From Brevibacterium yomogidense (GTDB lineage: Bacteria > Actinomycetota > Actinomycetes > Actinomycetales > Brevibacteriaceae), in contig NZ_JABASY010000006.1 of the NCBI RefSeq assembly GCF_016107685.1, positions 62,001 to 126,000 on the forward strand: a DNA stretch of 64,000 nucleotides, in the 5' to 3' direction. The position numbers and the translations under genes were made by a program. The notes beneath the pieces were generated by a model. It saw nothing but the letters and a program-made list of their open reading frames with translations. It had not been told where the DNA came from and searched no databases. Shown here one piece after another: positions 2,059 to 59,985 of this stretch. The stretch's first letter is position 1; every line of letters starts with the position of its first letter.

Positions 2059-2175
2059 GGACCACGACGGCCCGGACCACGACGGCCCGGACCACGACGG
2101 CCCGGACCACGACGGCCCGGACCACGACGGCCCGGACCACGACGGCCCGGACCACGACGGCCCGGACCACGACGA
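2059..2175. repeat. 15-bp tandem array directly after the hrpA stop
   Basis: Seven perfect copies of GGACCACGACGGCCC run head to tail from the base after the hrpA stop, followed by a degenerate eighth copy; another partial copy lies near 2190. No spacers are present, so it is not CRISPR. The array is not part of a convincing gene on either strand. Confidence 0.95.
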
Positions 2176-2240
2176 GGTGGGGGCGGTCCGGACCACGACG
2201 ATGTGGGGCGGGACCGTGCCCGCTAGGCGGTCTGAGTCCG

Positions 2241-2693
2241 CTACCCCCAGAAGACACCCGTGACGATCCCCATGAGCGGCATGAAACCGGCAGCGAGCAC
2301 GGTGGCACCGGCCCAGCTCCACCGCCACCGCCACGTGTCGCGCCGCCAGCCGATGAAGAGGCACACGAGCGCGGCGACGAGGCAGATGAACCCGCCCACG
2401 GACATGAGGATGACGCCGAACTGCGTCCACCCGCCGGCCCCCAGCTGCATGATGTACACCGCGACCTGTGACATCTCGAGGGAGAACGCGATCGCCAGCC
2501 ACAGCAGCGGGGCGCTCGCCAGCGCGGCCAGCACGAGGGGCAGGACGCGGAGCAGGCGGCCAGTCCGGTGCGGGTCCCGTGCGACGGTCGTGACCTCGTC
2601 CGGGTGGTCGTCGTGCTGATCGTCCCACCGGTCGTCGTGTCCGTCGTCCCACTGGTCGTCCCGGGGGCTCGATGATCTGCGGTTGCTGCTCAC
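2241..2693 (-). CDS. small membrane protein with Asp/Trp-rich N-terminus, unknown function
   Basis: A 150-residue protein that I do not recognise. The first 45 residues are hydrophilic, with repeated WDD/HDD units (DDQWDDGHDDRWDD) and a Pro/Asp tail. About three hydrophobic membrane segments follow, the last near the C-terminus (GATVLAAGFMPLMGIVTGVF). The start at 2693 (GTG) is preferred because a TAGGCT hexamer on the minus strand (2701-2706) lies 7 nt upstream, the leaderless arrangement used throughout this window; an in-frame GTG at 2699 would add two residues. It is transcribed divergently from prfC, whose own promoter is only about 30 bp away. Acidic cytoplasmic tails joined to short membrane bundles are common in actinobacteria but give no function. 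Confidence 0.72.
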   Translation of the reverse strand: MSSNRRSSSPRDDQWDDGHDDRWDDQHDDHPDEVTTVARDPHRTGRLLRVLPLVLAALASAPLLWLAIAFSLEMSQVAVYIMQLGAGGWTQFGVILMSVGGFICLVAALVCLFIGWRRDTWRWRWSWAGATVLAAGFMPLMGIVTGVFWG

Positions 2694-2700
2694 GGACACC

Positions 2701-2706
2701 AGCCTA
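2701..2706 (-). promoter_or_regulatory. leaderless -10 (TAGGCT) for the small membrane protein gene
   Basis: TAGGCT on the minus strand with 7 nt to the GTG at 2693, placing the transcription start at or next to the start codon. Confidence 0.5.
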
Positions 2707-2732
2707 GATGTCCCCGCTGGAGAACACCTGCC

Positions 2733-2738
2733 TACACT
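2733..2738 (+). promoter_or_regulatory. leaderless -10 (TACACT) for prfC
   Basis: TACACT followed by 6 nt and the GTG start of prfC. No ribosome binding site is present, so the transcript probably begins at the GTG. Confidence 0.6.
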
Positions 2739-2744
2739 GGAGCG

Positions 2745-4349: not shown

Positions 4350-4421
4350 CGATCCGGGGTGCTGCGCAGCGGACCGCGCGAGTGCAGCGAGGCGTGTGAT
4401 TCAGCGCACGGGGTGGTGGGT

Positions 4422-7586: not shown

Positions 7587-7626
7587 TGTCGGGTGGCCGA
7601 GTCCTCTGTCGGGTGGCCGACTCCTG
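7587..7626. repeat. two 20-bp direct repeats after the AbgT-family gene
   Basis: Two adjacent near-identical copies beginning TGTCGGGTGGCCGA start 40 bp past the stop. This is one of several local 3'-end duplications in the window. Confidence 0.85.
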
Positions 7627-8628: not shown

Positions 8629-8647
8629 CGGGTCATCGGGACAGATC

Positions 8648-15439: not shown

Positions 15440-17555
15440 CGAGCGTCCGGCCGGCGAGCATCCGGCCGGCGACGGATCAGCTGACGGCAGGTCAGCCGAC
15501 GACAGGTCGGTTGACGACGGGCCGGTGGGCGGCGGACCGCACGGTGCTGGTCGCGGACCACGCCGGAGCGGTGGGGGCGAGACGCGGTACGGCCGTTTCG
15601 CGGGCGGCCCGGACCCTCTCGCGCCCCCGGTGGACCTCGCGGAAGCGCTCGCATCGATGGCCGACGACGTCATGGCGGGCTACGGCCCCGACCAGGCCCT
15701 TCGGGAGTACCTGCGACGTGGCGGGGAGAACACGCGGGGGCTCGACGACCTCGCCGGCGACATCCAGCGCAAGCGCCGTTCCCTGCTGGAACGGCACGGG
15801 ATGGGCGGCACGATCGACGAGGTGAAGCGTCTCCTCGACGAGGCGGTGCTCGCTGAACGGGGACAGCTCGCCCGCGACATCACGATGGACGAGACGGACC
15901 GGACCTTCCGCGAGATGCAGATGGAGAACCTGCCGGAGTCACCTGCGGCCGCCGTGTCGGAGCTGCGCGGCTACGACTGGCAGTCCCCGCAGGCACGGGA
16001 GGCCTTCGGGCAGATCGAGGACCTGCTGGGCCGCGACATGCTCGACGCCCGGTTCCAGGGCATGAAGCAGGCGCTCGAGAACGCGACGGACGAGGACCGG
16101 GAACGGGTGCGGGACATGCTGAGCGACCTCGGCGACCTCCTGGAGAAGCGGGAGCGCGGCGAGGACACGGACGACGACTTCGCCCGCTTCATGGACGAGC
16201 ACGGGGACCTCCTGCCGGAGGGCGCCGACAACCTCGACCAGCTGGTCGACATGCTGGCGCGCAGGTCCGCCGCCGCACAGCGGATGCTCGCCTCGATGAC
16301 GGAGGAGCAGCGGGCGGAGCTCGCGGCGCTGTCGGAGCAGGCGTTCGGCTCACCGGACCTGCAGGAGCAGCTCGACCGGGTCGATCGCGGCCTGCAGGGC
16401 CTGCGCCCCGACCTCGACTGGAGCGGTGGGGAGCAGTTCGAAGGGGACGACGGCCTCGGGCTCGGTGAGGGTGCCGGCGTCCTCGAGGAACTCGCGGAGC
16501 TCGACCGGCTCGCCCACCAGCTGAGCCAGGCGTACCCGGGCGCGTCGCTCACCGACCTCGACGTCGACGGGCTGGACCGCCACCTGGGCCGCGACGCCGG
16601 CGTGGACGCGCGGACGCTGCAGGAGATCGAGGACCGGATGCGGGAGTCCGGCTTCATGCGGCGCACTGCCGACGGCGACTTGCGTCTGTCCCCGGCGGCA
16701 CTGCGGCGACTCGGCAAGACCCTGCTGCGGGACGCGGCGACGCGCCTGTCCGGGCGTGCGGGGCAGCGCGATGCGCGGCTGGCCGGGGTCGCGGGTGAGC
16801 AGACCGGGGCGACCCGTTCGTGGGAGTTCGGGGACACGGAACCGTGGGATGTGGGACGCACCGTCGGCAACGCGATCATGCGCACCGCAGCAGAGGGCGG
16901 CGACCCCACCCAGGGGGTGCGGATCCGCGTCGACGACGTCGAGGTCCGCCAGACGGAGGCGCGCACGCGAGCGGCTGTGGCCCTGCTGGTCGACGTGTCG
17001 TTCTCCATGGCGATGGAGGGGTGGTGGCTGCCGATGAAGCGGACCGCGCTCGCCCTCCACCACCTGGTGCGCACTAGGTTCCGCGGCGACGCGCTCACGC
17101 TCATCACGTTCGGGAAGCTGGCGCGGACGACGGACCTCGACGGGCTCGTGGGGCTGGGCGCGGAGTACGAGCCGGGCACCAACCTGCATCACGGGCTCAT
17201 GCTCGCCGGCGAGTTCTTCCGGAAGCACCCCACGGCGCAGCCAGTCCTGCTCATCGTCACCGACGGGGAGCCGACCGCGTACTTGACCCCGCGGGGCGAG
17301 GGCGCGTTCTCCTACCCGCCGGACTCCATCACGGTGCGGAAGACGATCGCGGAGCTCGACCGTGTGGGGAGGACGGGCGCGACGGTGACGTTCTTCCGGC
17401 TGGGCGACGACCGGGGCCTCGAGCGTTTCGTCGCCGCGATGGCCCGCCGCGTCCGCGGCACGGTCGTCGCCCCCGACCAGGACGACCTGGGATCCGCCGT
17501 GGTGGGCGAATTCATGCGGACCCGACGGCAGGGCGGAGACCAGCGGGCGGGGTGA
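15432..17555 (+). CDS. VWA-domain protein, partner of the MoxR-like ATPase
   Basis: A 707-residue protein. A disordered Gly/Asp-rich N-terminus (about 50 residues) is followed by a long, charged, mostly helical middle (about 60-470) rich in Glu/Arg/Leu. A C-terminal von Willebrand A domain begins near residue 515, with the MIDAS motif DVSFSM (Asp521), a Thr in GTNLHHG and the Asp in IVTDGEPTAYL. In MoxR-VWA pairs the VWA protein delivers clients to the ATPase for metal insertion or complex assembly. There is no signal peptide or membrane segment, so it is cytoplasmic. It overlaps the ATPase gene by 8 bp. Three 18-bp repeats straddle its stop codon. Confidence 0.85.
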   Translation: MDDERPAGEHPAGDGSADGRSADDRSVDDGPVGGGPHGAGRGPRRSGGGETRYGRFAGGPDPLAPPVDLAEALASMADDVMAGYGPDQALREYLRRGGENTRGLDDLAGDIQRKRRSLLERHGMGGTIDEVKRLLDEAVLAERGQLARDITMDETDRTFREMQMENLPESPAAAVSELRGYDWQSPQAREAFGQIEDLLGRDMLDARFQGMKQALENATDEDRERVRDMLSDLGDLLEKRERGEDTDDDFARFMDEHGDLLPEGADNLDQLVDMLARRSAAAQRMLASMTEEQRAELAALSEQAFGSPDLQEQLDRVDRGLQGLRPDLDWSGGEQFEGDDGLGLGEGAGVLEELAELDRLAHQLSQAYPGASLTDLDVDGLDRHLGRDAGVDARTLQEIEDRMRESGFMRRTADGDLRLSPAALRRLGKTLLRDAATRLSGRAGQRDARLAGVAGEQTGATRSWEFGDTEPWDVGRTVGNAIMRTAAEGGDPTQGVRIRVDDVEVRQTEARTRAAVALLVDVSFSMAMEGWWLPMKRTALALHHLVRTRFRGDALTLITFGKLARTTDLDGLVGLGAEYEPGTNLHHGLMLAGEFFRKHPTAQPVLLIVTDGEPTAYLTPRGEGAFSYPPDSITVRKTIAELDRVGRTGATVTFFRLGDDRGLERFVAAMARRVRGTVVAPDQDDLGSAVVGEFMRTRRQGGDQRAG

Positions 17556-17599
17556 GAACCAACGGCGGGGTGAGAGCCAAGGGCGGGGTGAGAGCCAGC
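17546..17599. repeat. three 18-bp repeats straddling the VWA-gene stop
   Basis: Units beginning GGCGGGGTGAGA at 17546, 17564 and 17582. The first contains the TGA at 17553-17555, and the second and third repeat the same TGA-containing sequence. Confidence 0.92.
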
Positions 17600-17611: not shown

Positions 17612-17733
17612 CCTGGCACCACCACTCAGGCCAGACCTTCACCATTCGGACCGGCCCGGACTGCTCGGGCCCGATAGAGGTCCTCACCTTTTCGACGGAG
17701 CCTCCTCACCCTTTTGCCGGGGTGAGACTCACG

Positions 17734-17771
17734 CTCACCCTTCCGGGTGAGCCAGTGCCTCACCCTTCCGG
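17734..17771. repeat. direct repeats straddling the acn stop
   Basis: CTCACCCTTCCGG occurs at 17734-17746 and 17759-17771, the second copy containing the acn stop (17760-17762 on the minus strand). Further imperfect CTCACC copies lie near 17690 and 17705. Confidence 0.85.
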
Positions 17772-19730: not shown

Positions 19731-19895
19731 CGTGGCCCTCCTTTTCGTCGATTCCTCCGCGGCTGCGGGATATGACGAGGTGGGGCCAGTCTAGGACCTT
19801 CCTCCGCGCCTGAACAGGGGAGGTTGCTGGTGAGAGGGTCGGCTGGGCCTGGAGCCCGCCTAGCAGAACCAGAACAGAACCCGTCTAGCAGCACC

Positions 19896-19943
19896 CGCCC
19901 AGCAGGTCCAGCACCCGCCCAGTAGACCTAGAATCCGCCCAGC
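19896..19943. repeat. 20-bp-period repeats straddling the DUF885-gene stop
   Basis: CCGCCCAG recurs at 19896, 19916 and 19936 within longer similar 20-bp units; a more degenerate copy lies near 19876. The DUF885 stop (19928-19930, minus strand) falls inside the array. Confidence 0.8.
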
Positions 19944-21667
19944 AGCGCCTTCTGCATCGTCGACAGTCCCACGGAGCCCAGCGCGAGTGCTCGTGAGTGG
20001 AAGTCGCGGAGCGAGAACTCGCGGCCTGCGGCCTCTTCCTGCGCCTTCACCGCCAGCCGCAGGTCCTGCCAGATCCGCTGGCCCACCGAGTACGACGGCG
20101 CCTGACCCGGCCAGCCCAGGTAGCGGGTGAGCTCGAATTCGAGGAAGCTGCGCTCCATCGCGACGTTGTCGGTGAGGAACTGCCAGGCCTTCTCCTTGTC
20201 CCACACGCCGCCGCCCAGCGATTCGGGGGCGCGCTTGCGGCAGTGCACGCCGATGTCCAGGCACACGCGGGCAGCGCGCAGACGCTGCGAGTCGAGCATT
20301 CCGAACCGGTCGCCCGGGTCCTTGAGGAAGCCCAGCTCGTCCATGAGCCTCTCCGCGTACAGCGCCCAGCCCTCCCCGTGGCCGGACACCCACACACCCT
20401 GCTTCCGCCACGCGTTCAGCACATCGTCCTGCATGACGGCCGCACCGAACTGCAGGTGATGGCCGGGAACGCCCTCGTGGTAGACCGTCGTCTTCTCCTG
20501 CCACGTCGAGAACGTCTCCACGCCCGCCGGCACCGACCACCACATGCGGCCGGGCCGTGAGAAGTCCGAGGTGGGAGGCGTGTAGTAGATGCCTCCCGTC
20601 CCGTCTTCGAGCACCATGCACTCGATCGTCTTCACCGGGTCGCTGATGTCGAAGTGCGTTCCGGCCATCGCCGCGGTCGCCTCGTCCGCGGTCACCTGCA
20701 TCCATTCCCGCAGGGCGTCGAGTCCGTGCAGCTGCCTGGCCGGATCCTCGTCGAGCCGCTTCATCGTCTCCGTCACGGACGCACCCGGGTACAGCGATTC
20801 CGCGATCTGGCGCTGCTCCGCATCGATCGAGGCGAGCAGCTCCAGCCCCCACTCGTACGTCTCGTCGAGGTCGACCTCCGCGCCCAAGAACATCCGTGAG
20901 TGCAGCGAGTACTCCTCCGGCCCCACGGCGTCGTCCTCGCGAGCGTCGGCCAGCAGCTGGTCCTGCAGGAATTCGGCGAACCGGCCGGCTGCAGTGCGTG
21001 CGGTCCCCGCCGCGTCCTCCAACTCCCGCCGAAGCCCGTCGGAGATCGCCTCGCCGTCGGCGACCGAGCCACCCGCAGTGGCGACGAACTTGTCGAAGTG
21101 GCCCCCGGCCTCGGCGAGGGTGCGTGCCTGTTCGAGCACCGCGGCGACCTGGGTGCGGGCGGCGACCCGACCGTCGGCGCGGGCTTCCAGCAGCGATTCG
21201 CGGTGCCCGGCGAGCGCCTGGCCGACGGCCCGCAGGCGGGAGGCGTTGGCCTCCCAGTCGTCCGCCGAGGCGGTGGGCACCAGATCGAAGAACTCCCGGA
21301 CCGTCTGCAGCGGGGAGGCGATGACGTTGAGTTCGGACAGGTCCGCTCCCAGCGTGTGCAGCTCCCGCTCGAGACCGAGCCGCTCCCGCAGCGCGTCCGC
21401 CGTCACCGCGTCGACGTCGTCGAAGGTGCCGGCGGCGCGGGAGGCGGCTTCCGCCTCGGCGAGCGAGTCGAGGGTGCGGGCACCCAGGGCGTCCCAGGCA
21501 GCGTGGCCGCCGGGGGAGAAGTCGTCGAGTTCGTCGTCGCGACCGTCCGCACCCACTTCGATCCGCAGCGAGGGGGAGAGGCCGAGCATCCCGCGGAAGT
21601 GGTCGTCGGCGACCTGGTCGACGGGGGTGGGCACGCGCGACGGTGTCGGGGCAGTCGATTCGCTCAT
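19928..21667 (-). CDS. DUF885 protein (putative metallopeptidase-like)
   Basis: A 579-residue protein of the DUF885 family. The hallmark VYHEGVPGHHLQ (about residues 392-403) looks like a zinc-peptidase site (His-Glu and His-His). A mostly helical N-terminal half precedes it, and VWDKEKAWQFL and RYLGWPGQAPSYSVG are C-terminal family segments. There is no signal peptide or membrane segment. A few DUF885 proteins are implicated in peptide cleavage, but most are uncharacterised. It lies 31 bp after the HAD-GH65 gene on the same strand and has its own leaderless -10 (TAGTCT) in that gap, so it can be expressed separately. Confidence 0.85.
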   Translation of the reverse strand: MSESTAPTPSRVPTPVDQVADDHFRGMLGLSPSLRIEVGADGRDDELDDFSPGGHAAWDALGARTLDSLAEAEAASRAAGTFDDVDAVTADALRERLGLERELHTLGADLSELNVIASPLQTVREFFDLVPTASADDWEANASRLRAVGQALAGHRESLLEARADGRVAARTQVAAVLEQARTLAEAGGHFDKFVATAGGSVADGEAISDGLRRELEDAAGTARTAAGRFAEFLQDQLLADAREDDAVGPEEYSLHSRMFLGAEVDLDETYEWGLELLASIDAEQRQIAESLYPGASVTETMKRLDEDPARQLHGLDALREWMQVTADEATAAMAGTHFDISDPVKTIECMVLEDGTGGIYYTPPTSDFSRPGRMWWSVPAGVETFSTWQEKTTVYHEGVPGHHLQFGAAVMQDDVLNAWRKQGVWVSGHGEGWALYAERLMDELGFLKDPGDRFGMLDSQRLRAARVCLDIGVHCRKRAPESLGGGVWDKEKAWQFLTDNVAMERSFLEFELTRYLGWPGQAPSYSVGQRIWQDLRLAVKAQEEAAGREFSLRDFHSRALALGSVGLSTMQKALLGGF

Positions 21668-25427: not shown

Positions 25428-26087
25428 ATGCCGTCATCGTCGCTGTCACAGCCGGAGCCACAGCCACAGCCGGGGCTGCAGCCACGGTCTGAGCCTGAGC
25501 CGCAGCCGGAGCCCGCGCCACAGTCGCAGGGTTCAGCGGCCGCGCCATCACTGTCGTGGCCGGAGCATCCGCTCACGGGCGAGCGTGTGCACCTGCGGCG
25601 GGCGGACGAACGCGACATCCGCTTGGCTCAGATCCTGTCCGGGGACCCGTACATTCCCCGTATCGGATCGCTGCCGCCCAACGCGACGGACGCCCAGGCC
25701 CGTGAATGGGTCGACCACCAGCGCAGCAGCGTGGAACGGGGAGCCGGGTTCTCTTTCACCATCGTCGACACGGGGTCGGACACACCTGTCGGCAACTGCG
25801 GAGTGTGGTTGCGGGAGCTGTCGAACGGTCGTGCCAGCGCCGGCTACGCCGTCGCGCCGCCGTACCGCGGGCGGGGGCTGGCCGCGGATGCCCTGTCTGT
25901 CCTCACCGGATTCGCAGCTGAGCTTCCCGGCCTGCACCGGATCGAACTCTGCATCGAACCGTGGAACAGCGCGTCGGCGCGAACAGCCGAGGCTGCCGGC
26001 TATGTGAGGGAGGGCCTCATGCGCAGCCACCAGTGGATTGGCGGTCAGCGGCGGGACATGCTCCTCTACGCGCGTGTGGTCCGCTGA
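25428..26087 (+). CDS. GNAT acetyltransferase (RimJ/RimL type)
   Basis: A 219-residue protein. Residues 4-35 are a Pro/Gln/Glu-rich repeat (QPEPQPQPG-like). The rest is a GNAT domain: LTGERVHLRRADERDI, acetyl-CoA-binding YAVAPPYRGRGLAADAL with RGRGLA, and HRIELCIEPWNSASARTAEA, which closely resembles RimJ/RimL-like protein N-terminal acetyltransferases. The true substrate could equally be an amino acid, antibiotic or small molecule. The ATG is followed by a low-complexity region, so the exact start is uncertain. The last seven codons, including the stop, are duplicated directly downstream. It is divergent from the HAD-GH65 gene. Confidence 0.85.
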   Translation: MPSSSLSQPEPQPQPGLQPRSEPEPQPEPAPQSQGSAAAPSLSWPEHPLTGERVHLRRADERDIRLAQILSGDPYIPRIGSLPPNATDAQAREWVDHQRSSVERGAGFSFTIVDTGSDTPVGNCGVWLRELSNGRASAGYAVAPPYRGRGLAADALSVLTGFAAELPGLHRIELCIEPWNSASARTAEAAGYVREGLMRSHQWIGGQRRDMLLYARVVR

Positions 26088-26256: not shown

Positions 26257-27471
26257 ATGTCGCAGCGGCGACTGTGGAACAAGGACTTCATCGTCGCTCT
26301 CAGCATCAGCGTCTTCCTGGCGTTCGTCTTCTACCTGCTCGTCACATCGATGGTCGGCTATGCCGTGCTGCGCTTCGCCGCGGGAGAGACCGCTGCGGGA
26401 TTTGCGTCGACCGCGTTCGTCCTGGGGTCCGTCCTCACACGCCCGATGGCGGGCAAACTGCTGGACGTCGTGGGACGACGTCGACTCCTGACGGTCAGCC
26501 TGGTGCTGGCCGTCGTGGTGTCCATCGCCTACTTCTTCGTCGATTCCCTGTCCCTCTTCATCCTGTCGCGGTTGGCGCACGGGATGATGTTCGGCGCGGG
26601 CCATACGACGTTGAACGCCGCGGCGCAGGACCTCATCCCGTCGGCGCGCAGGTCGGAGGGCAGCGGGTACTTCGCCGCGTCGATGACGCTCGCGTCCGCG
26701 TTCGGCCCGCTCATCGCGGTGACCACCGTTGAGGAATGGGGCTACGGCGTCCTCTTCGGGGTGTCCCTGGCCTTCTCCCTCATCGCGCTGATCGGACTGC
26801 CCTTCCTCCGGCTGCCCGAGCACAGGCTCACCGCAGCGCAGCTGCGCAACGCCCTGTCGTTGAGCCCCCGCACTTTCGTCGATGCGGAAGGCTTCCGCAT
26901 GGGCGTCGTCATCTTCTTGACGGGGGCCGCGTATTCGGCGGTCCTCGCATTCCTTGCCACTCATGTCGCTCTCGCCACCGAGGCCGTCGGCGCCTCTTCG
27001 TCCGCGTCACCCCTGTACTTCCTGGGCTTCGCGGTGTCGTCTCTCACCGCACGCCTGACGATCGGCCGGGTGCAGGACCACCACGGCGACAATGTCGTCC
27101 TCTACCCCCTGTTCATCACGTTCGCACTGTCGTGTGTGATCGTCGCGGTCTGGCCGACGGTGTGGGGCCTGGCGATCGCAGGGCTGCTCGCCGGCTTCGG
27201 GTATGGGTCCCTCATCACCTGCGCGATGGCGATCGCAGTGCGGACGGCTGGTCTGTCACGGGTGGGGCTCGTCACGTCGACGTATCTGCTGAGCATGGAC
27301 CTGGGGCTGGGACTCGGGGCGATCGTGCTGGGCGCCGCCGCAGGAGCGTGGGGGTTCGAAGCGCTCTACCTTCTGTGTGCGGTACTCATCGCGCTCGCCG
27401 GCGGGTGGTATGCGCTGGTGCACGGGCGTTTCCCGCGCGCGGGCCGCGAAGGTGCGCCCGGCAGACGGTGA
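26257..27471 (+). CDS. MFS transporter, first of a tandem pair
   Basis: A 404-residue major facilitator with twelve predicted membrane segments. It opens RLWNKDFIVALSISVFLAF and carries the loop 2-3 motif GKLLDVVGRRRLL (a form of MFS motif A) and RLAHGMMFGAGHTTLNA. The second half includes LTIGRVQDHHGDNVVLYP. It is paralogous to the next gene. Such proteins in Firmicutes and actinobacteria are mostly proton-driven exporters; no substrate can be predicted. The start has an excellent AAGGAGG 2-3 nt before the ATG, so an earlier in-frame start at 26182 is unlikely. The last eight codons and stop are duplicated as a 34-bp repeat. Confidence 0.88.
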   Translation: MSQRRLWNKDFIVALSISVFLAFVFYLLVTSMVGYAVLRFAAGETAAGFASTAFVLGSVLTRPMAGKLLDVVGRRRLLTVSLVLAVVVSIAYFFVDSLSLFILSRLAHGMMFGAGHTTLNAAAQDLIPSARRSEGSGYFAASMTLASAFGPLIAVTTVEEWGYGVLFGVSLAFSLIALIGLPFLRLPEHRLTAAQLRNALSLSPRTFVDAEGFRMGVVIFLTGAAYSAVLAFLATHVALATEAVGASSSASPLYFLGFAVSSLTARLTIGRVQDHHGDNVVLYPLFITFALSCVIVAVWPTVWGLAIAGLLAGFGYGSLITCAMAIAVRTAGLSRVGLVTSTYLLSMDLGLGLGAIVLGAAAGAWGFEALYLLCAVLIALAGGWYALVHGRFPRAGREGAPGRR

Positions 27472-27513
27472 GGGTCGTTGCGAAGGTGCGCCCGCCATAC
27501 GGTGAGGGTCGCC
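27446..27513. repeat. two 34-bp repeats straddling the first MFS-gene stop
   Basis: 27446-27479 and 27480-27513 are near identical. The first holds the TGA at 27469-27471, and the same TGA is repeated in the second. Confidence 0.92.
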
Positions 27514-27598: not shown

Positions 27599-28783
27599 GT
27601 GACTGATCAGCGACTGTGGACGAAGACCTTCGTCGTCGGAATCATCGTCAACCTCTTCATGTCGACGGTGTTCTACCTCCTCATGACGACCATGGCGATG
27701 TACGCCGTCGACCGGTTCGCCGCATCGGAGACCGGCGCGGGGCTCGCCTCCTCGAGCTTCATCATCGGTGCTGTGGTCGGAAGGATCCTTGCGGGGAAGT
27801 TCCTCGACGTGGTGGGCCGGCGGCGAATGCTGGTCGCGAGCATGGCGGTCTTCGTCCTCGCGGGCGCCGCCTACATCCCGATCGACGGTTTCGCCCTCCT
27901 CATCGCTCTGCGACTTGTCCACGGCTTCGCGTTCGGTATGGGGAACACCTCGCTCGTCGCGTCCATCCAGTCCGTCATACCGCCCTGGCGGCGTGCGGAG
28001 GGCAACGGCTACTTCGGCACCGCGACGACTCTGGCGACGGCGGTCGGGCCGCTGCTGGGAGTGTGGCTGAGCGTCGAGTTCGGTTTCGCGTTCCTGTTCT
28101 GGGCTGCATCCGTGTGCGGCTTCGTCGCGATGGTGGCGGCTCTGCTTTTCGCGGTGCCGGAACGCACGCTGAGTGCTGACGAGAGGACTGCACTCCGGTC
28201 GTTCCACCCGGCGAGCTTCGTCGACCCGGGCGCACTGAAGCCCGGTGCTGTCATGGGGCTCGGCGGGATGGCGTATTCGGCGGTGCTCGCATACCTCGCT
28301 GTCTACACGACATCCGTCGGGGTGCCGGGTGCTGCGGGCACCTATTTCGTCTTCTTCGCCATCGGGTCGCTCGCTGCTCGTCTCTTCGCGGGGCGCATCC
28401 AGGACCGGTGGGGCGACAACGTCGTCCTCGTCCCGGTCTTCGTCGTCTTCTTCGCGGGTATGGCGGTCGTCGCCGAGGCCCAGACCCACTGGGCCTTCTG
28501 GCTCGCGGGTGTGCTCACCGGGCTGGGGTTCGGCTGTCTCCTGCCGTCCCTGCAAGCGATCCTCATCTCACGCACCCCGAGTGCCCGAGTGGGTGTCGCA
28601 ACCTCGACGTTCTTCCTGATGCTCGACGTGGGCACGGGGATCGGCCCGGTCGTGTTGGGCGTCATCGCGGGGAGGGTCGGGTACTCGCCGATGTTCTGGA
28701 CCTGTTCCGGCCTGGTCGTGCTATCCGCGATGCTCTACTTCGCAGTCCACGGCCGTCACGCGGGGAGACGCGGGACAGTCTGA
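27599..28783 (+). CDS. MFS transporter, second of a tandem pair
   Basis: A 394-residue twelve-segment transporter clearly related to its upstream neighbour: RLWTKTFVVGIIVNLFMS against RLWNKDF, GKFLDVVGRRRML against GKLLDVVGRRRLL, and FAGRIQDRWGDNVVLVP against IGRVQDHHGDNVVLYP. The pair arose by duplication. Unlike the first gene it is leaderless, with TACACT 7 nt upstream of the GTG, so the two copies use different translation initiation and probably different control. No substrate can be inferred. Imperfect 29-bp repeats begin at its stop codon. Confidence 0.88.
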   Translation: MTDQRLWTKTFVVGIIVNLFMSTVFYLLMTTMAMYAVDRFAASETGAGLASSSFIIGAVVGRILAGKFLDVVGRRRMLVASMAVFVLAGAAYIPIDGFALLIALRLVHGFAFGMGNTSLVASIQSVIPPWRRAEGNGYFGTATTLATAVGPLLGVWLSVEFGFAFLFWAASVCGFVAMVAALLFAVPERTLSADERTALRSFHPASFVDPGALKPGAVMGLGGMAYSAVLAYLAVYTTSVGVPGAAGTYFVFFAIGSLAARLFAGRIQDRWGDNVVLVPVFVVFFAGMAVVAEAQTHWAFWLAGVLTGLGFGCLLPSLQAILISRTPSARVGVATSTFFLMLDVGTGIGPVVLGVIAGRVGYSPMFWTCSGLVVLSAMLYFAVHGRHAGRRGTV

Positions 28784-28892
28784 CTGGTCTGGCGAGGACC
28801 TCACCGGTCTGACTGGTCCGGCGGGGCCTCACCGGTCTGTCCGGTCTGGCGAGGACCTCACCGGTCTGACTCGGTTCGACGGGGACTGCGCC
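28777..28892. repeat. four 28-30-bp repeats starting at the second MFS-gene stop
   Basis: Units beginning at 28777, 28806, 28834 and 28863 share GGTCTGACTGGTCTGGCGA-like sequence. The first contains the TGA at 28781-28783. They fill most of the convergent gap to the HNH gene. Confidence 0.85.
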
Positions 28893-30991: not shown

Positions 30992-31188
30992 CGTCCCTCC
31001 CTCGCAGAACGTTCGACGTGGCCCTTCACGTTCCAGATGAGGCATTCCCCATCGATGTTCTACACGCTATTAGGAGGCACGGACATAACTACGAGAAACG
31101 GCTTACTGAAAGTGTCGTCCCAGGTGGGCCTCGTGCTTCCATGCAGCGGCGGGTGCGCGACCATCCCGAGAAGGCCATTCGGAGGGTG
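30992..31188. other. intergenic region upstream of the DUF222/HNH gene
   Basis: No gene is supported here. It is notably less GC-rich than its surroundings around 31050-31130. A minus-strand TAGAAC near 31054 could be a -10 for the HNH gene. Confidence 0.4.
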
Positions 31189-31370
31189 GCTCAGACGCGT
31201 GGCCAGCCGGGCAGACTCAGACGCATGGCCAACCGGGCAGGCTCAGACGCGTGGCCAGCCGGGCAGGCTCAGACGCGTGGCCAGCCGGGCAGGCTCAGGC
31301 GCAAGGCCAACCGGACGGGGCCAGCCGCATAGCCAACCGGGCAAGCTCGGGCGCGTGGCTGACCGGGCAG
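31189..31370. repeat. seven 26-bp tandem repeats downstream of accE
   Basis: Units of 26 bp (for example GCTCAGACGCGTGGCC plus 10 bp) begin at 31189, 31215, 31241, 31267, 31293, 31319 and 31345. Units 1, 3 and 4 are identical and the rest diverge. Part of the unit (GGCAGGCTCAG) matches the accE stop region at about 31419-31429. There are no spacers. Confidence 0.95.
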
Positions 31371-31425
31371 GTCGGGGGGCGGGGGTTACCCGGGCCGGGT
31401 CAGGTGTTCTAGCGTCCAGGCAGGC

Positions 31426-34377: not shown

Positions 34378-36332
34378 GCGCGGATGAGAACCGCGCAGAA
34401 GACCACCGAACCACTCAGAGAAGGACACCGCCTGTGAAGGCCGACAGACCTGCGACGTGGACGGGGTCGGTGCGCTGGGCGGACGCGGCGGACCCTGCCG
34501 CATGGAAGCGGGACGGGAGTCCGGCGGAACCCGGCGGTTCGGATGTGCAGAGCACGCAGCAGCTGCCACCGGTCGTCGCTGAAGCCGGATCACCACCGGT
34601 CACGGCGCTGCCGATCATCCCGGAACACACTGCGACAGATGATGAGCCGACGGCGGAGAAGGGCGCGGGCGCAGGACAGGGCGCGGGCGCCGGACCGGGT
34701 GCCGTCGCCGGAGCAGGTGCCGTCGCCGGACCGGGTGCTGGCACAGGAGCAGGCGCGGCCTCGGGGGCAGGCTCGATCTCAGGAACAAGCGCGGCCTCGA
34801 GTGCCGGTGCTGCTGCGGGGACAGCTGCTGCTGCGGGGACAGGTGCTGCTGCGAGACGCGGTGCTTCCGGAGGACGAGACGCTGCCGGAGGACGAGATGC
34901 TGTTCCGGGGGCTCGCGGTGCCACGGGGCAGGAACAGGCGGCGGGCGAGGACCGGGCGAGGGGCACGGAGCCGGCTGCGACCTCGGCGGCAGATGCAGAC
35001 GCGGGCGAGCCGTGGGCGGGCGGGGGAGATGACTTCTCCGACATCGACCCACCGGACGACGACCCGGGCACCGTCGCGGACGCCACCTCGACAGAAGCAG
35101 CCACGGCGGAAGCGGACGCTGCCTCCGCCGAGGCCGCCACAGAGGAAGCGGACGGCGCTCCACTGTCGGATGCGGCACGCAGTGAGTTCTCCCTGCGGCT
35201 GTCTGACGACCCCCGGACGGGGCCGATGCCGGAGATCGACCTCCACGCTGCTCTGTCGGAGAAGGAATCCACGGCCGCGGAGAACACGATCTACGAGCTG
35301 CGGACCGCCGCGCAGCACCTCGAGGAGGTGCTGATCGGCGGCAAGCGGGTGCTCACCCGCAAGGAGGTCGCCCAGCTGGCAGAGGTGTCCACCCTGTCCG
35401 CCCGGAAGCTGTGGCGTGCGCTGGGCCAGCCTCTCATCCCCGAAGGCGAAGCGGCCTTCACCGTCAGCGATGCGGCACCGCTGCGCAGGGTCGCGGATCT
35501 GGTGTCGAGTGGGCTCGTCGATGAGGAAACCGCGCTCCAGATGTCGCGTGCGATCGGACAGATGACCGACAGGCTGGTCGTCTGGCAGATGGAGGCGATG
35601 GTCGAGTACCTCATCGAGGAGAAGGGGCTGAGCGACAGCGAGGCGCGGCGTGCCTCCCTCGACGTCTTCGAGGACATCATCGATCCGCTGCAGGACCTCA
35701 TGGTCTACGCGTGGCGCCGCAACCTCGCCGGTGCGCTGGGGCGTCTCAACGTGAACGTGGAGGAGACCCTGGAGATCGGCGGCGCATCGCGCGGACAGGA
35801 CCCGACGATGCCGCTGGCCCGCGGGATCGGGTTCATCGACCTGGTCTCGTATACCCGCCTGTCGCAGCAGCTGGACTCGCGTGAGCTCAGCCGGCTGGTG
35901 AAGCGCTTCCAGTTCCTCGCCTACAACATCGTTGCCGCGGGCGGCGGGAAGGTCATCAAGACCGTCGGCGACGAAGTGTTCTTCGCCGCGGAGACACCGC
36001 TGGCCGGTGCGGAGATCGCGATGACGCTGCTGGAGCAGGTGAAGAAGGACGGGTCGCTGCCCCGCTGCCGCGTGGGCTATTCGTGGGGGCGGGTGCTGTC
36101 GCGGATGGGCGACATCTTCGGGACCACCGTGAACCTGGCGGCGCGTCTCACTGCGGTCGCGGACCCAGGCACCGTGGTGACGGACACCGAGACCGCACGC
36201 ATCATCGAGCGCGACGACATGTTCGGGTTCGACAACCGGCGTGACCTCAACCTGCAGGGTCTGGGAGAGATCGGGGTCGTGGAGATGCACCGGCTCACCG
36301 CACCGACGATCACGTCCGAAGACATCACCTGA
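34374..36332 (+). CDS. class III adenylate cyclase with autoregulatory domain
   Basis: A 652-residue protein. Residues 1-250 are low-complexity (Ala/Gly/Arg/Glu/Asp). Residues 290-460 are a helical domain like the adenylate cyclase regulatory domain of pH-sensing mycobacterial Rv1264 (RKEVAQLAEVSTLSARKLWRA). The catalytic domain begins near 483 and has the metal Asp in FIDLVSYTRL, the substrate Lys in VIKTVGDEVFF with the second metal Asp, and the transition-state Asn/Arg in VNLAARL. All key residues are present, so it should make cAMP as a homodimer. The ATG overlaps the birA stop; an in-frame GTG at 34434 with AGAGAAGGA upstream is an alternative start. Three 18-bp repeats straddle its stop. 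Confidence 0.9.
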   Translation: MSADENRAEDHRTTQRRTPPVKADRPATWTGSVRWADAADPAAWKRDGSPAEPGGSDVQSTQQLPPVVAEAGSPPVTALPIIPEHTATDDEPTAEKGAGAGQGAGAGPGAVAGAGAVAGPGAGTGAGAASGAGSISGTSAASSAGAAAGTAAAAGTGAAARRGASGGRDAAGGRDAVPGARGATGQEQAAGEDRARGTEPAATSAADADAGEPWAGGGDDFSDIDPPDDDPGTVADATSTEAATAEADAASAEAATEEADGAPLSDAARSEFSLRLSDDPRTGPMPEIDLHAALSEKESTAAENTIYELRTAAQHLEEVLIGGKRVLTRKEVAQLAEVSTLSARKLWRALGQPLIPEGEAAFTVSDAAPLRRVADLVSSGLVDEETALQMSRAIGQMTDRLVVWQMEAMVEYLIEEKGLSDSEARRASLDVFEDIIDPLQDLMVYAWRRNLAGALGRLNVNVEETLEIGGASRGQDPTMPLARGIGFIDLVSYTRLSQQLDSRELSRLVKRFQFLAYNIVAAGGGKVIKTVGDEVFFAAETPLAGAEIAMTLLEQVKKDGSLPRCRVGYSWGRVLSRMGDIFGTTVNLAARLTAVADPGTVVTDTETARIIERDDMFGFDNRRDLNLQGLGEIGVVEMHRLTAPTITSEDIT

Positions 36333-36381
36333 GAGGGAGGGCTCGCCTGGGAGGCAGGGCCCACCTGACAACCAGGGCCCG
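36328..36381. repeat. three 18-bp repeats straddling the cyclase stop
   Basis: Units at 36328, 36346 and 36364 share CCTG-N6-AGGGC. The first contains the TGA at 36330-36332 and the third carries a TGA at the same place. Confidence 0.8.
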
Positions 36382-45816: not shown

Positions 45817-45844
45817 GCCGAGGCGCCTCAGCCGAGGTGCCTCA
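45817..45844. repeat. two 14-bp repeats straddling the gtrA-family stop
   Basis: GCCGAGGCGCCTCA and GCCGAGGTGCCTCA are adjacent; the second ends with the stop of the minus-strand gene (45842-45844). Confidence 0.9.
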
Positions 45845-46315
45845 GCCGTCTGCGGGGTCCTCGAGGTCGACCGTCGCGCGCCTCGGTGTGGGCGGTGTGC
45901 CCTTCTTCGGGCGGTACAGGACGTGGCGGTACATGAGATAGCGGAAGACGTTGCCCAGCAGGACGCCGACCACGTTGCCGGAGACGTTGTCCGCGAACGC
46001 GGACGTGAGCCCCAGGACGTGGTGGGAGAACCACAGGCAGAGCAGCGCGATGAGCAGGCCCACGGCGTTGACGGCGAAGAATCCCACCGCCTCGCGCACG
46101 GGGGTGTTCGTCCGCCCGTCCCGGAACGTCCAGTAGCGGGACCCCACCCACGACACCGCCGTCGCGGCCGTGACGGACAGGACCTTCGCCCACATGGGGC
46201 CCATGCCCACCGGATCCAGGCGCAGCAGATTGAAGAGACCGATGTCGACGAGGAAGGCGACGCCGCCGACGGCGGAGAACTTGCCGACCCGCCGCAGCTC
46301 CTTCACCAATCCCAT
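45842..46315 (-). CDS. GtrA-family membrane protein
   Basis: A 157-residue protein with four predicted membrane segments. The opening KFSAVGGVAFLVDIGLFNLL, the central SRYWTFRDGR and the late GNVFRYLMYRHVLY are signatures of the GtrA family, which assists transfer of lipid-linked sugars across the membrane or modifies cell wall polysaccharides. The start at ATG 46315 is chosen because the minus-strand TATTCT lies 7 nt upstream; an in-frame ATG at 46360 would add 15 residues and overlap the purK promoter. It is divergent from purKE with 71 bp between starts. Two 14-bp repeats cover its stop. Confidence 0.88.
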   Translation of the reverse strand: MGLVKELRRVGKFSAVGGVAFLVDIGLFNLLRLDPVGMGPMWAKVLSVTAATAVSWVGSRYWTFRDGRTNTPVREAVGFFAVNAVGLLIALLCLWFSHHVLGLTSAFADNVSGNVVGVLLGNVFRYLMYRHVLYRPKKGTPPTPRRATVDLEDPADG

Positions 46316-49521: not shown

Positions 49522-49568
49522 CATACGGAGGCGCGTCGCACAGCGGCGCGTGACACGGAGGCGCGTCG
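49516..49568. repeat. duplicated acyl-CoA dehydrogenase stop region
   Basis: GCGTGACATACGGAGGCG (from 49516, containing the stop at 49519) recurs from 49548 with a 2-bp deletion; both copies continue into GCGTCG. Confidence 0.85.
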
Positions 49569-50731: not shown

Positions 50732-51928
50732 ATGAAGATCGCACACCGCATCGACGACTTGGGGACGGAGACCGCGTTCGCCGTCGCTCAGGCCGCAGCC
50801 GAATGGAAGGCGAAGGGCAATCGCATCTTCCCGTTCCACCTGGGAGACATCGACATCCCCACGGCACCGCACATCGTCGACGCGATGAACGCTGCGATCG
50901 CAGACGGGAAGACCGGCTACTGCCCGGGACCGGGGATCCCGGAGCTGAGAGCCGTACTCGCAGACGACATCGGCGGCCAGCGCGGCATGCCGGTGGACGC
51001 AGAGGACGTCGTCGTGACAACCGGCGGGAAGCCCGTCATCACGAAGTTCCTCCAGACGGTCATGAACCCGGGGGAGGGCGTGCTCTACCCGAACCCCGGC
51101 TTCCCGATCTACGAGTCCCAGATCGAGTACTTGGGCGGGGTGCCGCTGCCGTACAGGTACGTGCCCACGCCGGACGGCTTCGCGATCGACCTGGACCACC
51201 TGCGGTCGCTCATCACCCCGCAGACGACCGCCCTGATCTACAACGACCTGCAGAACCCCATCTCCGCGGAGTCGACGGACGCGGAACGTGAAGCGGTCGC
51301 GAAGATCGCTCAGGAGCACGACCTGTGGGTGCTGTCCGATGAGGCGTACTTCGAGATGCGCTATGAAGGCGAGTCGCGGTCGATCGCGGCGCTGCCCGGC
51401 ATGCAGGAGCGGACGGTCATCCTCTACACCTTCAGCAAGAAGTTTGCGATGACGGGTTCGCGGCTGGGCTGTGCGGTCGCGCCGCGGGAGGTCGCGAACA
51501 TCATCTCCACCCTCAACACGAACGACGAATCGTGCACGACGCACTTCGTCCAGTGGGCGGGCATCGCCGCGCTGCAGGGCACCCAGGAGCCCGTGCACCG
51601 CATGCTCGACGAGTTCCGGGGGCGCAGGGACGCCGTCTGCGACCTGGTGAACGGGATCCCGGGGATGAGCGTCGCGGTGCCCCAGTCGACGTTCTACGTA
51701 TTCCCCGACGTCACGGAGACCGTGCAGCGGATGGGGCTCACCGACGTCGGGGAGTTCGCACAGCAGGCGCTGCACGCGACAGGGGTGTCCTTCTGCACCC
51801 GCGAGCACTTCGGCAGACGGCAGCCGGGTGAGGACCGCGACTACATCCGGCTCGCCTACTCCGGAATCGGCCTGGACGACATCACGGAGGGGCTGGGCCT
51901 CCTGCGCGACTGGGTCGAATCCGTCTGA
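50732..51928 (+). CDS. class I/II pyridoxal-phosphate aminotransferase
   Basis: A 398-residue fold-type I aminotransferase. It has the N-terminal IFPFHLGDIDIPTAPHIVDA, KTGYCPGPGIPELR, PNPGFPIYESQIEYLGG and, in the lysine region, YTFSKKFAMTGSRLG (Lys near 235-236), with SDEAYFEMRYEG (Asp/Tyr contact PLP). The closest described groups are aspartate/aromatic/alanine-type aminotransferases; the donor and acceptor are not predictable. AGGAG is 7-8 nt before the ATG at 50732. An in-frame start at 50657 is possible but lacks a better site. Three 15-bp repeats straddle the stop. It is divergent from the patatin gene. Confidence 0.88.
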   Translation: MKIAHRIDDLGTETAFAVAQAAAEWKAKGNRIFPFHLGDIDIPTAPHIVDAMNAAIADGKTGYCPGPGIPELRAVLADDIGGQRGMPVDAEDVVVTTGGKPVITKFLQTVMNPGEGVLYPNPGFPIYESQIEYLGGVPLPYRYVPTPDGFAIDLDHLRSLITPQTTALIYNDLQNPISAESTDAEREAVAKIAQEHDLWVLSDEAYFEMRYEGESRSIAALPGMQERTVILYTFSKKFAMTGSRLGCAVAPREVANIISTLNTNDESCTTHFVQWAGIAALQGTQEPVHRMLDEFRGRRDAVCDLVNGIPGMSVAVPQSTFYVFPDVTETVQRMGLTDVGEFAQQALHATGVSFCTREHFGRRQPGEDRDYIRLAYSGIGLDDITEGLGLLRDWVESV

Positions 51929-51965
51929 GCCTCCTCCGTCTGAGCCTCCTCCGTGTGAGGCTCCG
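51921..51965. repeat. three 15-bp repeats straddling the aminotransferase stop
   Basis: CCGTCTGAGCCTCCT at 51921 and 51936 is identical; the third copy (51951) is diverged. The first contains the TGA at 51926-51928 and the second repeats it. Confidence 0.93.
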
Positions 51966-58382: not shown

Positions 58383-58402
58383 GAGACGAGCACTCGGCAG
58401 CA

Positions 58403-58455
58403 ACACAGAAGCGGGCGGTGGACTCCGCATGGGAATCCACCGCCCGCTTCTGTGT
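58403..58455. terminator. 20-bp bidirectional hairpin between manA and scoB
   Basis: Perfect 20-bp arms (58403-58422 and 58436-58455) with a 13-nt loop, between convergent genes. There is no T-run on either side. It is the longest perfect stem seen in the window. Confidence 0.72.
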
Positions 58456-58472
58456 GCGAAGCGCTCCGCCTG

Positions 58473-59135
58473 TCACGCGGCCGGCGCGGCCTCCGGGACA
58501 TCACCGGTGACGGGCTCGAGGCCCTGTGTCTTCTCCTGGATCTCCTCGACACTCACCCCGGGCGCCCGCTCGATGAGCCGGAAGCCGGTGCCGGTGACGT
58601 CGAGCACCGCCAGGTCCGTGATGATGCGGGAGACGACCCGCTCACCCGTGAGCGGCAGGTCGCAGGTCTCCAACAGCTTGAGCGACCCGTCCTTCGCGGT
58701 GTGGTCCATGATGACGATGACCTTCTTCGCGCCGTGGACCAGGTCCATCGCGCCGCCCATGCCCTTGACCATCTTGCCGGGGATCATCCAGTTCGCGATG
58801 TCGCCGTTGCCCGCGACCTGCATCGCGCCGAGGATCGCCGCGTCGATCTTCCCGCCGCGGATCATGCCGAAGCTGGTCGCGGAGTCGAAGTAGGCGGAAC
58901 CCGGGTTCATCGTGACGATCTCCTTGCCCGCGTTGATGAGGTCGGGGTCGACCTCGTCCCTCCGCGGGTAGGGGCCGACGCCCAGCAGACCGTTCTCCGA
59001 CTGCAGGACGACGTTCACACCTTCGGGGATGTAGTTGGGCACCAGCGTGGGCATGCCGATACCCAGGTTGACGTACGAACCGTCGGGCAGTTCCTGGGCC
59101 GCGCGGGCGGCCATCTGATTGCGTGTGAGACCCAT
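58473..59135 (-). CDS. scoB: 3-oxoacid CoA-transferase, subunit B
   Basis: A 220-residue beta subunit. The catalytic Glu, which forms the CoA thioester, is in [11 protein letters not shown] (about 45-55). [17 protein letters not shown] precedes it, and [19 protein letters not shown] and [12 protein letters not shown] follow. With ScoA it transfers CoA from succinyl-CoA to acetoacetate or a related 3-oxoacid, allowing ketone-body or acyl-chain use. It is the second gene of an operon, 2 bp after scoA. The C-terminus (PEAAPAA) is a little longer than usual. Relatives with different 3-oxoacids (PcaIJ) share these motifs, so the acid is not certain. It is convergent with manA. Confidence 0.93.
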
Positions 59136-59137
59136 GG

Positions 59138-59908
59138 TCAGTCCTCCCTCACGGTCATCTTCTCGATGGGCTTGTCCGCGACCTGCTCCGGTGTGAGCTC
59201 CACGACGCGGGCGACGTAGATGCCGGGCAGGTGGACATCGTCCGGATCGATCTGACCGACCTCGACGAGCTCTTCGACCTCCGCGATCGTCGTCTTCGCG
59301 GACATCGCGGCGGGCGGGTTGAAGTTGCGGGCGGACGAGTGGAAGACGAGGTTGCCGGCGCGGTCGCCCTTCGCGGCGCGGACCAGCGCGAAGTCCGACG
59401 GGAGCGACTCCTCGAGGACGTAGTCGTGCTCCTCGCCGAACGTCGACAGTGTCTTCGTCTCCTTCTTCGGAGACTCCTTCACGACGTTGCCGTCGCTGTC
59501 GTACTTCCAGGGGATCCCGCCGTCGGCCACCTGGGTGCCCGAACCGGTGATCGTGTAGAAGGCGGGGATCCCCGCACCTGCTGCGCGCAGCTTCTCCGCC
59601 ATCGTGCCCTGCGGCGTCAGCTCGACCTCGAGCTCTCCGGACAGGTACTGGCGGGCGAATTCCTTGTTCTCACCGACGTAGGAGGCGATGATGCGGCTGA
59701 TCTGCCGCGTCTCCAGGAGCTTGCCCAGCCCCCGGCCGTCGACACCCGCGTTGTTCGAGATGACCTCGAGACCCTTCGCGCCCTGGTCGTGGAGTGCGTC
59801 GATGAGGACTTCGGGCACTCCGACGACCCCGAATCCGCCGACGGCGATGCGCACGCCGTCGGGGATGTCCTTCACCGCTTCTGCTGCTGAGGAAACCACT
59901 TTGTCCAT
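59138..59908 (-). CDS. scoA: 3-oxoacid CoA-transferase, subunit A
   Basis: A 256-residue alpha subunit. The glycine motif [17 protein letters not shown] is at the start. [38 protein letters not shown] and [21 protein letters not shown] are family signatures. The pair ScoA-ScoB forms the succinyl-CoA:3-oxoacid transferase heterotetramer. AATAAT lies 7 nt before the ATG at 59908 on the minus strand, fitting a leaderless start. TIGR03089 and cofE lie upstream on the same strand, separated by about 57 bp that contain repeated stop-like sequence, so scoAB probably begins its own transcript. Confidence 0.93.
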
Positions 59909-59941
59909 GCTCCGGATTATTGCATGTCACCTGAAAGCGGG

Positions 59942-59985
59942 CTTATGCGTCCACGGGGCACGACTTACGGGTCCACGGCGGGACG
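59942..59985. repeat. two 22-bp repeats straddling the TIGR03089-gene stop
   Basis: Units beginning CTTATGCGTCCACGG (59942) and CTTACGGGTCCACGG (59964). The second holds the TAA stop (59965-59967, minus strand) and the first repeats a TAA in the same position. Confidence 0.82.

What the first reader, a model, noticed from the sequence alone, without database searches (positions are those of the whole stretch)
2059..59985. Tandem duplications centred on or just after stop codons at about fourteen genes
Short tandem repeats overlap or directly follow the stop codons of many genes on both strands: hrpA (2059-2175, 15 bp x7), AbgT-family (7587-7626, 20 bp x2), VWA (17546-17599, 18 bp x3), acn (17734-17771), DUF885 (19896-19943, 20 bp x3), GNAT (26067-26108, 21 bp x2), both MFS genes (27446-27513, 34 bp x2; 28777-28892, about 29 bp x4), accE (31189-31370, 26 bp x7), cyclase (36328-36381, 18 bp x3), GtrA family (45817-45844, 14 bp x2), acyl-CoA dehydrogenase (49516-49568), aminotransferase (51921-51965, 15 bp x3) and TIGR03089 (59942-59985, 22 bp x2). 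Units differ between loci, so this is not a dispersed repeat family, and many copies duplicate the stop codon itself. Periods such as 14, 20, 22, 26 and 34 are not multiples of three, so the signal is not a coding repeat. I infer a recurrent slippage process, perhaps tolerated or selected at gene ends (fail-safe stops, transcript ends).
Basis: partly seen in the sequence, partly recalled or inferred. Interest (0 to 1): 0.8.

Follow-up and report, generated by a model that had tools for sequence, protein, structure and literature searches.

The report
Small duplications pile up at stops
In this bacterium (a Brevibacterium) short stretches of DNA are often copied in tandem at or just after the ends of genes, probably because such copies do least harm there, and the copies come and go so fast that a close relative has none of the same ones.

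Summary
Real pattern, mostly an ordinary cause, one unexplained residue. TRF supports 12 of the 14 listed arrays; 8 of the 12 overlap a stop codon. In 1.04 Mb of this Brevibacterium genome 100 arrays lie in gene gaps, against under 2 in shuffled gaps; in 864 kb 24 overlap stops and 1 a start. None of 27 array-bearing junctions is shared with the relative G030. Inside genes 102 of 116 clean duplications keep the frame. So duplications arise often and survive where the protein stays intact, as when a copy straddles the stop. Fail-safe stops are not supported (in-frame periods in 8 of 21 and 10 of 31 stop-overlapping arrays); no overall link to hairpins. Beyond tolerance, clean duplications are about threefold denser within 20 nt of stops than further downstream, the window's contig excluded (19 vs 30 arrays, p=0.00035), most in young arrays. 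This is not significant in relatives, and random placement within the same gaps predicts nearly as many stop overlaps in this genome (25 seen, 19.4 expected). Near stops the boundaries lack microhomology. Cause of the excess: open.

The parts
2059..2174 (+).
   Evidence: TRF score 232; G002 has a similar gene end and a 43-bp gap without the array
7587..7625 (+). 20 bp x 2 array 39 nt after the AbgT-family stop (7547)
   Evidence: TRF score 71; gap 271 bp against 133 (G030) and 123 (G002)
17546..17597 (+). 18 bp x 2.9 array over the VWA-gene stop (17555)
   Evidence: TRF score 90; convergent gap to acn is 204 bp here, 3 bp in G030, 7 bp in G002
17718..17765 (.). two further diverged copies of a 23-nt hairpin-like GGGTGAG...CTCACCC unit next to the acn stop; G030 has one such palindrome spanning both stops
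   Evidence: the repeat finder; sequences; no TRF call here
19889..19945 (-). 20 bp x 2.8 array over the DUF885-gene stop (19928)
   Evidence: TRF score 72; same C-terminal end as in B. jeotgali L051
26067..26108 (+). 21 bp x 2: last 21 bp of the GNAT gene including its stop, duplicated once
   Evidence: TRF score 77; a 20-bp duplication at the same stop in G002/B. yomogidense, none in B. jeotgali; of 28 best-hit loci in the genus, this one included, 2 show a clear duplication over the stop and 2 a weak signal
27446..27511 (+). 34 bp x 1.9 array over the first MFS stop (27471)
   Evidence: TRF score 118; gap 127 bp against 57 (G030) and 63 (G002)
28778..28886 (+). 29 bp x 3.8 array over the second MFS stop (28783)
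   Evidence: TRF score 146
31188..31371 (-).
   Evidence: TRF score 228; not at the stop itself; the gene has no Pfam match
36326..36380 (+). 18 bp x 3.1 diverged array over the cyclase stop (36332)
   Evidence: TRF score 61, 75% matches; gap 95 bp against 13 (G030) and 66 (G002); Guanylate_cyc domain
45817..45848 (-). 14 bp x 2.3 array over the GtrA-family stop (45842)
   Evidence: TRF score 57; gap 57 bp against 3 in G030; GtrA domain
49528..49568 (+). 15 bp x 2.7 diverged array 7 nt after the acyl-CoA dehydrogenase stop (49521); by eye it repeats the left arm of a long hairpin that follows
   Evidence: TRF score 54, 73% matches; sequence
51920..51964 (+). 15 bp x 3 array over the aminotransferase stop (51928)
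   Evidence: TRF score 76
   Evidence: seen by eye; not called by TRF at score 30 or by my detector; no Pfam match
   Evidence: TRF score 59; gap 131 bp against 61 in G030

Best explanation
This Brevibacterium lineage gains short tandem duplications (units mostly about 10-35 bp, any sequence) often and independently at each locus. Selection removes those that change a protein or sit at a gene start. A duplication that straddles the stop codon, or follows it, is invisible to the protein because the first copy still carries the end of the reading frame and the stop; the extra copy only lengthens the gap. So arrays collect at 3' gene ends, lengthen the gaps, decay and are replaced. Shown: no sharing with a relative, the frame rule inside genes, avoidance of starts, mostly intact C-termini, longer gaps. 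Inferred: that tolerance rather than benefit keeps them. Not resolved: why, in this genome, about three times more clean duplications have their first copy ending within 20 nt after the stop than further downstream (extra births there, or hidden constraint further downstream).
For: Far above shuffles. Density 1.18 per kb in convergent, 1.14 in co-directional, 0.31 in divergent gaps; array coverage is 2.3% in the last 20 nt of genes, 6.8% at 0-20 nt after stops, about 9-10% at 20-150 nt, and 0.8% in the 20 nt before starts, about what a protein-preserving rule predicts for ~18-bp units. Inside genes 130 of 136 TRF arrays and 102 of 116 clean duplications outside the window have periods divisible by three; stop-overlapping arrays do not prefer such periods (8 of 21; 10 of 31). 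Of 27 array-bearing junctions 22 have arrays in G000 only, 5 in G030 only, 0 in both; gaps with arrays in G000 are on average 91 bp (convergent, n=8) and 90 bp (co-directional, n=11) longer than the orthologous gap, against 40 (n=15) and 11 (n=70) without. Of 43 stop-overlapping arrays 14 could be compared with a relative; 11 of 14 proteins end at the same place. MutS has no match in 5 of 5 genomes, NucS matches in 10 of 10.
Against: Tolerance alone predicts an even spread downstream of stops, but clean duplications are 3.1 times denser within 20 nt (19 per 10.7 kb vs 30 per 52.1 kb, p=0.00035, window contig left out), and in convergent gaps arrays of 92% identity or more crowd to the stops (14 of 25 in the nearest fifth) while those under 85% do not (5 of 23). 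Random placement in the same gaps gave 25 seen vs 19.4 +- 3.5 in G000 but 21 vs 13.8 +- 2.7 in other Brevibacterium. Gaps without a called array are also longer in G000 than in G030. Three of the 27 junctions (window 15439-15629 and two in C15a) probably rest on a wrong start call. Non-overlapping co-directional arrays have periods divisible by three in 25 of 49, more than one third; wrong start calls may explain part.
Confidence: 0.6

Rival explanations
1. Mutational hotspot: the DNA around the stop codon is broken or nicked more often (for example where ribosomes leave the transcript and RNA-DNA hybrids form) and staggered ends are filled in and joined, giving tandem copies without microhomology.
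For: 3.1-fold excess within 20 nt of stops, seen in both separate samples of the genome (2.9-fold, p=0.007; 3.4-fold, p=0.015); young arrays most biased (in one search, pooled genomes, 39 of 81 young arrays have the first copy ending 0-20 nt past the stop); boundary homology near stops at chance (15 of 15 with 3 bp or less, pooled); Ku present in G000.
Against: No significant excess in other Brevibacterium (9 vs 25 arrays, ratio 1.7, p=0.18), Brachybacterium (3 vs 11, 1.25) or other actinobacteria (2 vs 13, 0.74) (low power). Placement within the same gaps: 25 vs 19.4 +- 3.5 in G000, convergent gaps 10 vs 10.3. At 0.95 identity, window left out, the excess is 2.1-fold with p=0.064. Array density does not differ significantly with Ku (0.72 per kb in 20 Ku-bearing genomes without G000, 0.50 in 6 Ku-less, p=0.17). 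No G/C skew of units. The step from breaks to stops is untested.
Confidence: 0.2
2. Fail-safe stop codons: extra copies are kept because they add in-frame stops behind the first.
For: Many units contain the stop codon.
Against: Periods divisible by three are about as common as one in three among stop-overlapping arrays: 8 of 21, 10 of 31 young ones, 11 of 25 in G000 and 3 of 21 in other Brevibacterium.
Confidence: 0.03
3. Tandem terminators: the arrays duplicate transcription-terminator hairpins and are kept, or form, because of them.
For: Some units hold or copy a hairpin arm (VWA/acn; acyl-CoA dehydrogenase). In gaps of 30-80 bp, genes with arrays fold somewhat better (-24.27, n=28, vs -21.82 kcal/mol, n=217; no test made).
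Against: Overall, genes with arrays, collapsed to one copy, fold no better than genes without (-23.75, n=93, vs -22.88 kcal/mol, n=604, p=0.19), the longer gap classes show no difference in that direction beyond 0.1 kcal/mol, and hairpin coverage is not higher.
Confidence: 0.08
4. Plain slippage between short direct repeats with even births, seen more at stops only because the coding copy decays more slowly.
For: 7 of 23 clean two-copy arrays away from stops have boundary homology of 4 bp or more (null 3.3%).
Against: The bias is strongest in the youngest arrays, and near-stop arrays show no homology beyond chance.
Confidence: 0.09

Closest known systems
Tandem repeats of Borg elements of Methanoperedens archaea (PMC9879509; abstract start, passages)
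   Same: Fast-evolving, independently arising arrays; inside genes always a multiple of three; about half intergenic or with the first unit within or partly within gene ends; only 14-38% of intergenic unit lengths divisible by three.
   Different: There perfect and A-enriched, on giant linear elements; here often diverged, in a chromosome sampled at 69% G+C, mostly 2-3 copies.
Bacterial VNTR / minisatellite loci (search listings only)
   Same: Short head-to-tail units, many in gaps.
   Different: The listings I saw treat them as typing markers and state no stop-codon concentration.
MIRU elements of mycobacteria (recalled, no call)
   Same: Repeats that can overlap stop codons of flanking genes.
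   Different: MIRUs are one dispersed homologous family; here units differ at each locus.
Patch-mediated tandem duplications from staggered breaks, reported in plants (recalled, no call)
   Same: Tandem copies of tens of bp with little boundary homology.
   Different: Not shown here; a link to Ku is not significant.

Membership tests
Bacterial VNTR / minisatellite | head-to-tail units of about 9-60 bp | tested here: met
Bacterial VNTR / minisatellite | copy number varies between strains of one species | not tested
   no second strain of the species was looked for; between species 0 of 27 array-bearing junctions shared
MIRU-like dispersed repeats | homologous unit at many loci | tested here: not met
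   of the window's gaps only that of GtrA has an off-locus match in the sampled 1.44 Mb
Fail-safe tandem stops | extra stop in frame more often than one in three | tested here: not met
   8 of 21, 10 of 31, 11 of 25 and 3 of 21
Tandem intrinsic terminators | stable hairpin at array-bearing gene ends more often than at others | tested here: not met
   overall p=0.19; a difference in the shortest gaps was not tested
Tandem intrinsic terminators | transcripts end in the array | not testable with these tools
   no RNA data
Borg-type gene-end tandem repeats | arrays within or partly within gene ends, in-frame when inside genes | tested here: met
   (14 of 116 in-gene duplications are out of frame)
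Borg-type gene-end tandem repeats | perfect, A-enriched units | tested here: not met
   median TRF match 84% in gap arrays; listed units are G+C rich
End-joining patch duplications | no boundary microhomology | tested here: inconclusive
   near stops 15 of 15 with 3 bp or less; away from stops 16 of 23 (pooled genomes)
End-joining patch duplications | depends on Ku | tested here: inconclusive
   0.72 vs 0.50 arrays per kb, p=0.17; arrays also occur without Ku

The most novel reading that the evidence does not exclude
Stop codons are a birth site for short, homology-independent tandem duplications in this lineage: DNA where translation ends is broken or nicked more often, the staggered ends are filled in and joined, and gene gaps grow outward from stop codons as new copies push older, decaying ones towards the middle.
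Probability: 0.15. Interest if true: 0.75.

Novelty: new variant of a known kind. Interest (0 to 1): 0.42.

Why it matters
It shows, with a clear frame rule, where a bacterial genome tolerates small duplications, and how a gap between genes can differ between relatives from 3 to 204 bp (VWA/acn). If the residual stop-proximal excess is a birth bias, it would link translation termination to a class of mutation and be testable in mutation-accumulation lines. It also warns that gap length and 3' sequence should not be read as conserved regulatory features here.

Tried and rejected
Detectability: a coding first copy decays more slowly, which could fake a bias; rejected because the youngest arrays are the most biased. 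Purging of gap centres by selection over time: would make old arrays the more biased; the opposite is seen, though hidden constraint is not excluded. Frameshift artefact (a duplication inside the gene creating a new stop): 11 of 14 testable genes keep the relatives' end; the 3 that differ were compared with G016 (two) or G003. Hairpins, unit G/C skew (p=0.80 and 0.44), dispersed family: no overall signal, save the shortest gaps. Loss of NucS: matches in 10 of 10 genomes; a review states NucS is unable to correct indels (PMC8228993, abstract sentence and passages). Ku: 39 of 57 genus genomes match, trend of array density not significant. GNAT recurrence: the first script read minus-strand loci the wrong way, corrected. 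Literature: ten searches listed no title or abstract start reporting stop-centred tandem duplications in bacterial chromosomes; of the listed papers I looked into only two, and the nearest was the Borg paper.

Limits: gene calls are from my own script, starts less certain than stops. L009 held 12 kb of N: counted, dropped whole, only its other 8 kb used from then on. Gaps over 600 bp (800) were left out. Arrays outside the allowed range were dropped: 20 in G000; they were left out uncounted. L049 was left out as it overlaps the G002 contig. Genome samples differ by call: 864 kb, 1.04 Mb, 1.44 Mb (on).
Full report
Setting. The window is G000:C15:62001-126000 of a 3.71-Mb genome in 18 contigs. 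It lies in Brevibacterium: its aconitase hits B. yomogidense at 85% and B. jeotgali at 84%, and same-genus genomes share contig lengths with those records (G002 with yomogidense, G044 with jeotgali). The closest genome with a full-length match, G030, has 94%. Genes were called with my own frame-aware script.

Observation. TRF at score 30 confirms 12 of the 14 listed arrays. Eight overlap the stop; hrpA's follows it directly; three lie 7, 39 and 55 nt downstream. The acn and TIGR03089 items are weak.

Chance. In 42 pieces (1.04 Mb) there are 28 arrays in convergent, 59 in co-directional and 13 in divergent gaps; three shuffles of the gaps gave means of 0.3, 1.0 and 0.3. By the same count arrays are also common in G020 and Brachybacterium and rarer in G030, Nocardia/Rhodococcus/Gordonia and Yaniella, most of these with small samples. 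G016 looked rich in 80 kb but has 0.59 per kb in 479 kb, against 1.14 in G000.

Position. In the first sample (41 pieces, 864 kb) 229 arrays of score 50 or more split into 136 inside genes, 68 wholly noncoding, 24 over stops, 1 over a start. Coverage rises over the stop and stays near 9-10% to 150 nt, then falls to 4.3% at 200-300 nt; next to starts it is 0.8%. The ramp is close to what follows if a duplication of about 18 bp is kept whenever its first copy contains the whole gene end. Dropping the arrays at random into the same gaps under that rule predicts 19.4 +- 3.5 stop overlaps in G000; 25 of 96 are seen; in other Brevibacterium 21 against 13.8 +- 2.7. Convergent gaps alone: 10 against 10.3 in G000 and 10 against 7.7 +- 1.8 in the others; co-directional 15 against 9.0 +- 2.5 and 11 against 6.2 +- 2.0, where avoidance of starts also pushes arrays to the stop side. 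By this test extra attraction to stops is weak.

Residue. A second test counts exposure over all gaps, not only those with arrays, and removes the inserted copies from gap length. Rates of array starts in G000 (62 pieces, 1.44 Mb) are 2.95 per kb over the stop, then 1.85, 1.72 and 1.08 in the next three 20-nt steps and 0 to 1.6 further out. With a separate detector of clean duplications, the first copy ends within 20 nt of the stop in 21 cases per 12.8 kb against 38 per 60.5 kb beyond, window left out (ratio 2.6, p=0.0008); without the whole contig, 19 per 10.7 kb against 30 per 52.1 kb (ratio 3.1, p=0.00035), and alike in the first (2.9) and the later (3.4) sample. With the identity limit at 0.85 or 0.95 the ratio, window left out, is 2.0 (p=0.0075) or 2.1 (p=0.064); the bin at 40-80 nt is also high (1.19 per kb), so the fall is not smooth. 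In convergent gaps, where no start interferes, 24 of 65 arrays lie in the fifth nearest a stop (p=0.003); of those with 92% identity or more 14 of 25 (p=2e-4); below 85% 5 of 23 (p=0.50). These convergent-gap counts include the window and pool eleven groups. In other Brevibacterium the clean-duplication excess is 1.7-fold (p=0.18), in Brachybacterium 1.25, in other actinobacteria 0.74; power is low.

Turnover. Between G000 and contig C5 of G030, 22 junctions carry an array only in G000 and 5 only in G030; none in both. Junctions with an array in G000 are on average about 90 bp longer than the orthologous ones. The VWA/acn gap is 204 bp here, 3 in G030 and 7 in G002; G030 shows one palindrome GGGGTGAGGCTCACCCC spanning both stops, and here three diverged copies of such a unit and an overlapping 18-bp array take up part of the gap. 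In 11 of 14 testable stop-overlapping genes the protein ends where the relative's does, so there the duplicated stop is most likely the old one. At the GNAT gene both this strain and B. yomogidense carry a duplication of the last 20-21 bp with the stop, B. jeotgali does not; among 28 best-hit loci the script flagged 4, two of them weak.

Frame rule. Inside genes 102 of 116 clean duplications outside the window have periods divisible by three. Over stops 8 of 21 do, 10 of 31 of the youngest, 11 of 25 in G000 and 3 of 21 elsewhere in the genus by TRF, so extra in-frame stops are not what is kept. Co-directional arrays clear of the stop show 25 of 49, a mild excess that wrong start calls may explain in part.

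Mechanism. Hairpins do not mark array-bearing gene ends overall (p=0.19), though in gaps of 30-80 bp such ends fold somewhat better (-24.27 vs -21.82 kcal/mol, untested). For 38 clean two-copy arrays, pooled from Brevibacterium and Brachybacterium, the homology at the boundaries was compared with random unit positions: near stops 0 of 15 reach 4 bp, elsewhere 7 of 23, null 3.3%. Slippage between direct repeats may therefore explain part of the arrays away from stops but finds no support at stops. Joining of filled-in staggered ends would fit; Ku matches in G000 and not in G030, G016 or G044, but the density difference by Ku is not significant without G000, and arrays occur in Ku-less genomes. 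MutS has no match in 5 of 5 and NucS matches in 10 of 10 genomes.

Judgement. The main pattern is duplication plus tolerance, a known kind of process with an unusually clear footprint; a precedent for arrays starting in gene ends exists in Borg elements. The threefold stop-proximal excess in this genome is the part worth a further test.

Noticed in passing
window 15440-15526: In-frame 15-bp repeats near the N-terminal end of the VWA gene (ORF from 15432, 707 aa; 660 aa in G030); my script's start at 15630 was probably wrong.
   Followed up: partly
window 28949-31045: ORF of up to 698 aa on the minus strand with weak coding score and no Pfam match; in G030 the accE-like gene follows the second MFS gene after 80 bp, so this is an insertion in G000, a loss in G030, or not a gene.
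   Followed up: partly
window 21699-25349: 1216-aa protein joining a HAD hydrolase and a glycosyl hydrolase 65, with several tandem repeats of periods divisible by three and no match in the G030 and G002 stretches compared.
   Followed up: partly
L210, L219 and C15 of G000; L044, L045, L217, L225: Two short dispersed intergenic sequence families (about 60 bp and about 90 bp, roughly 70-89% alike) apart from the tandem arrays.
   Followed up: no
57 Brevibacterium genomes: The end-joining protein Ku is patchy: matches in 39 of 57, in G052 in two short pieces and in G053 with a stop inside.
   Followed up: partly
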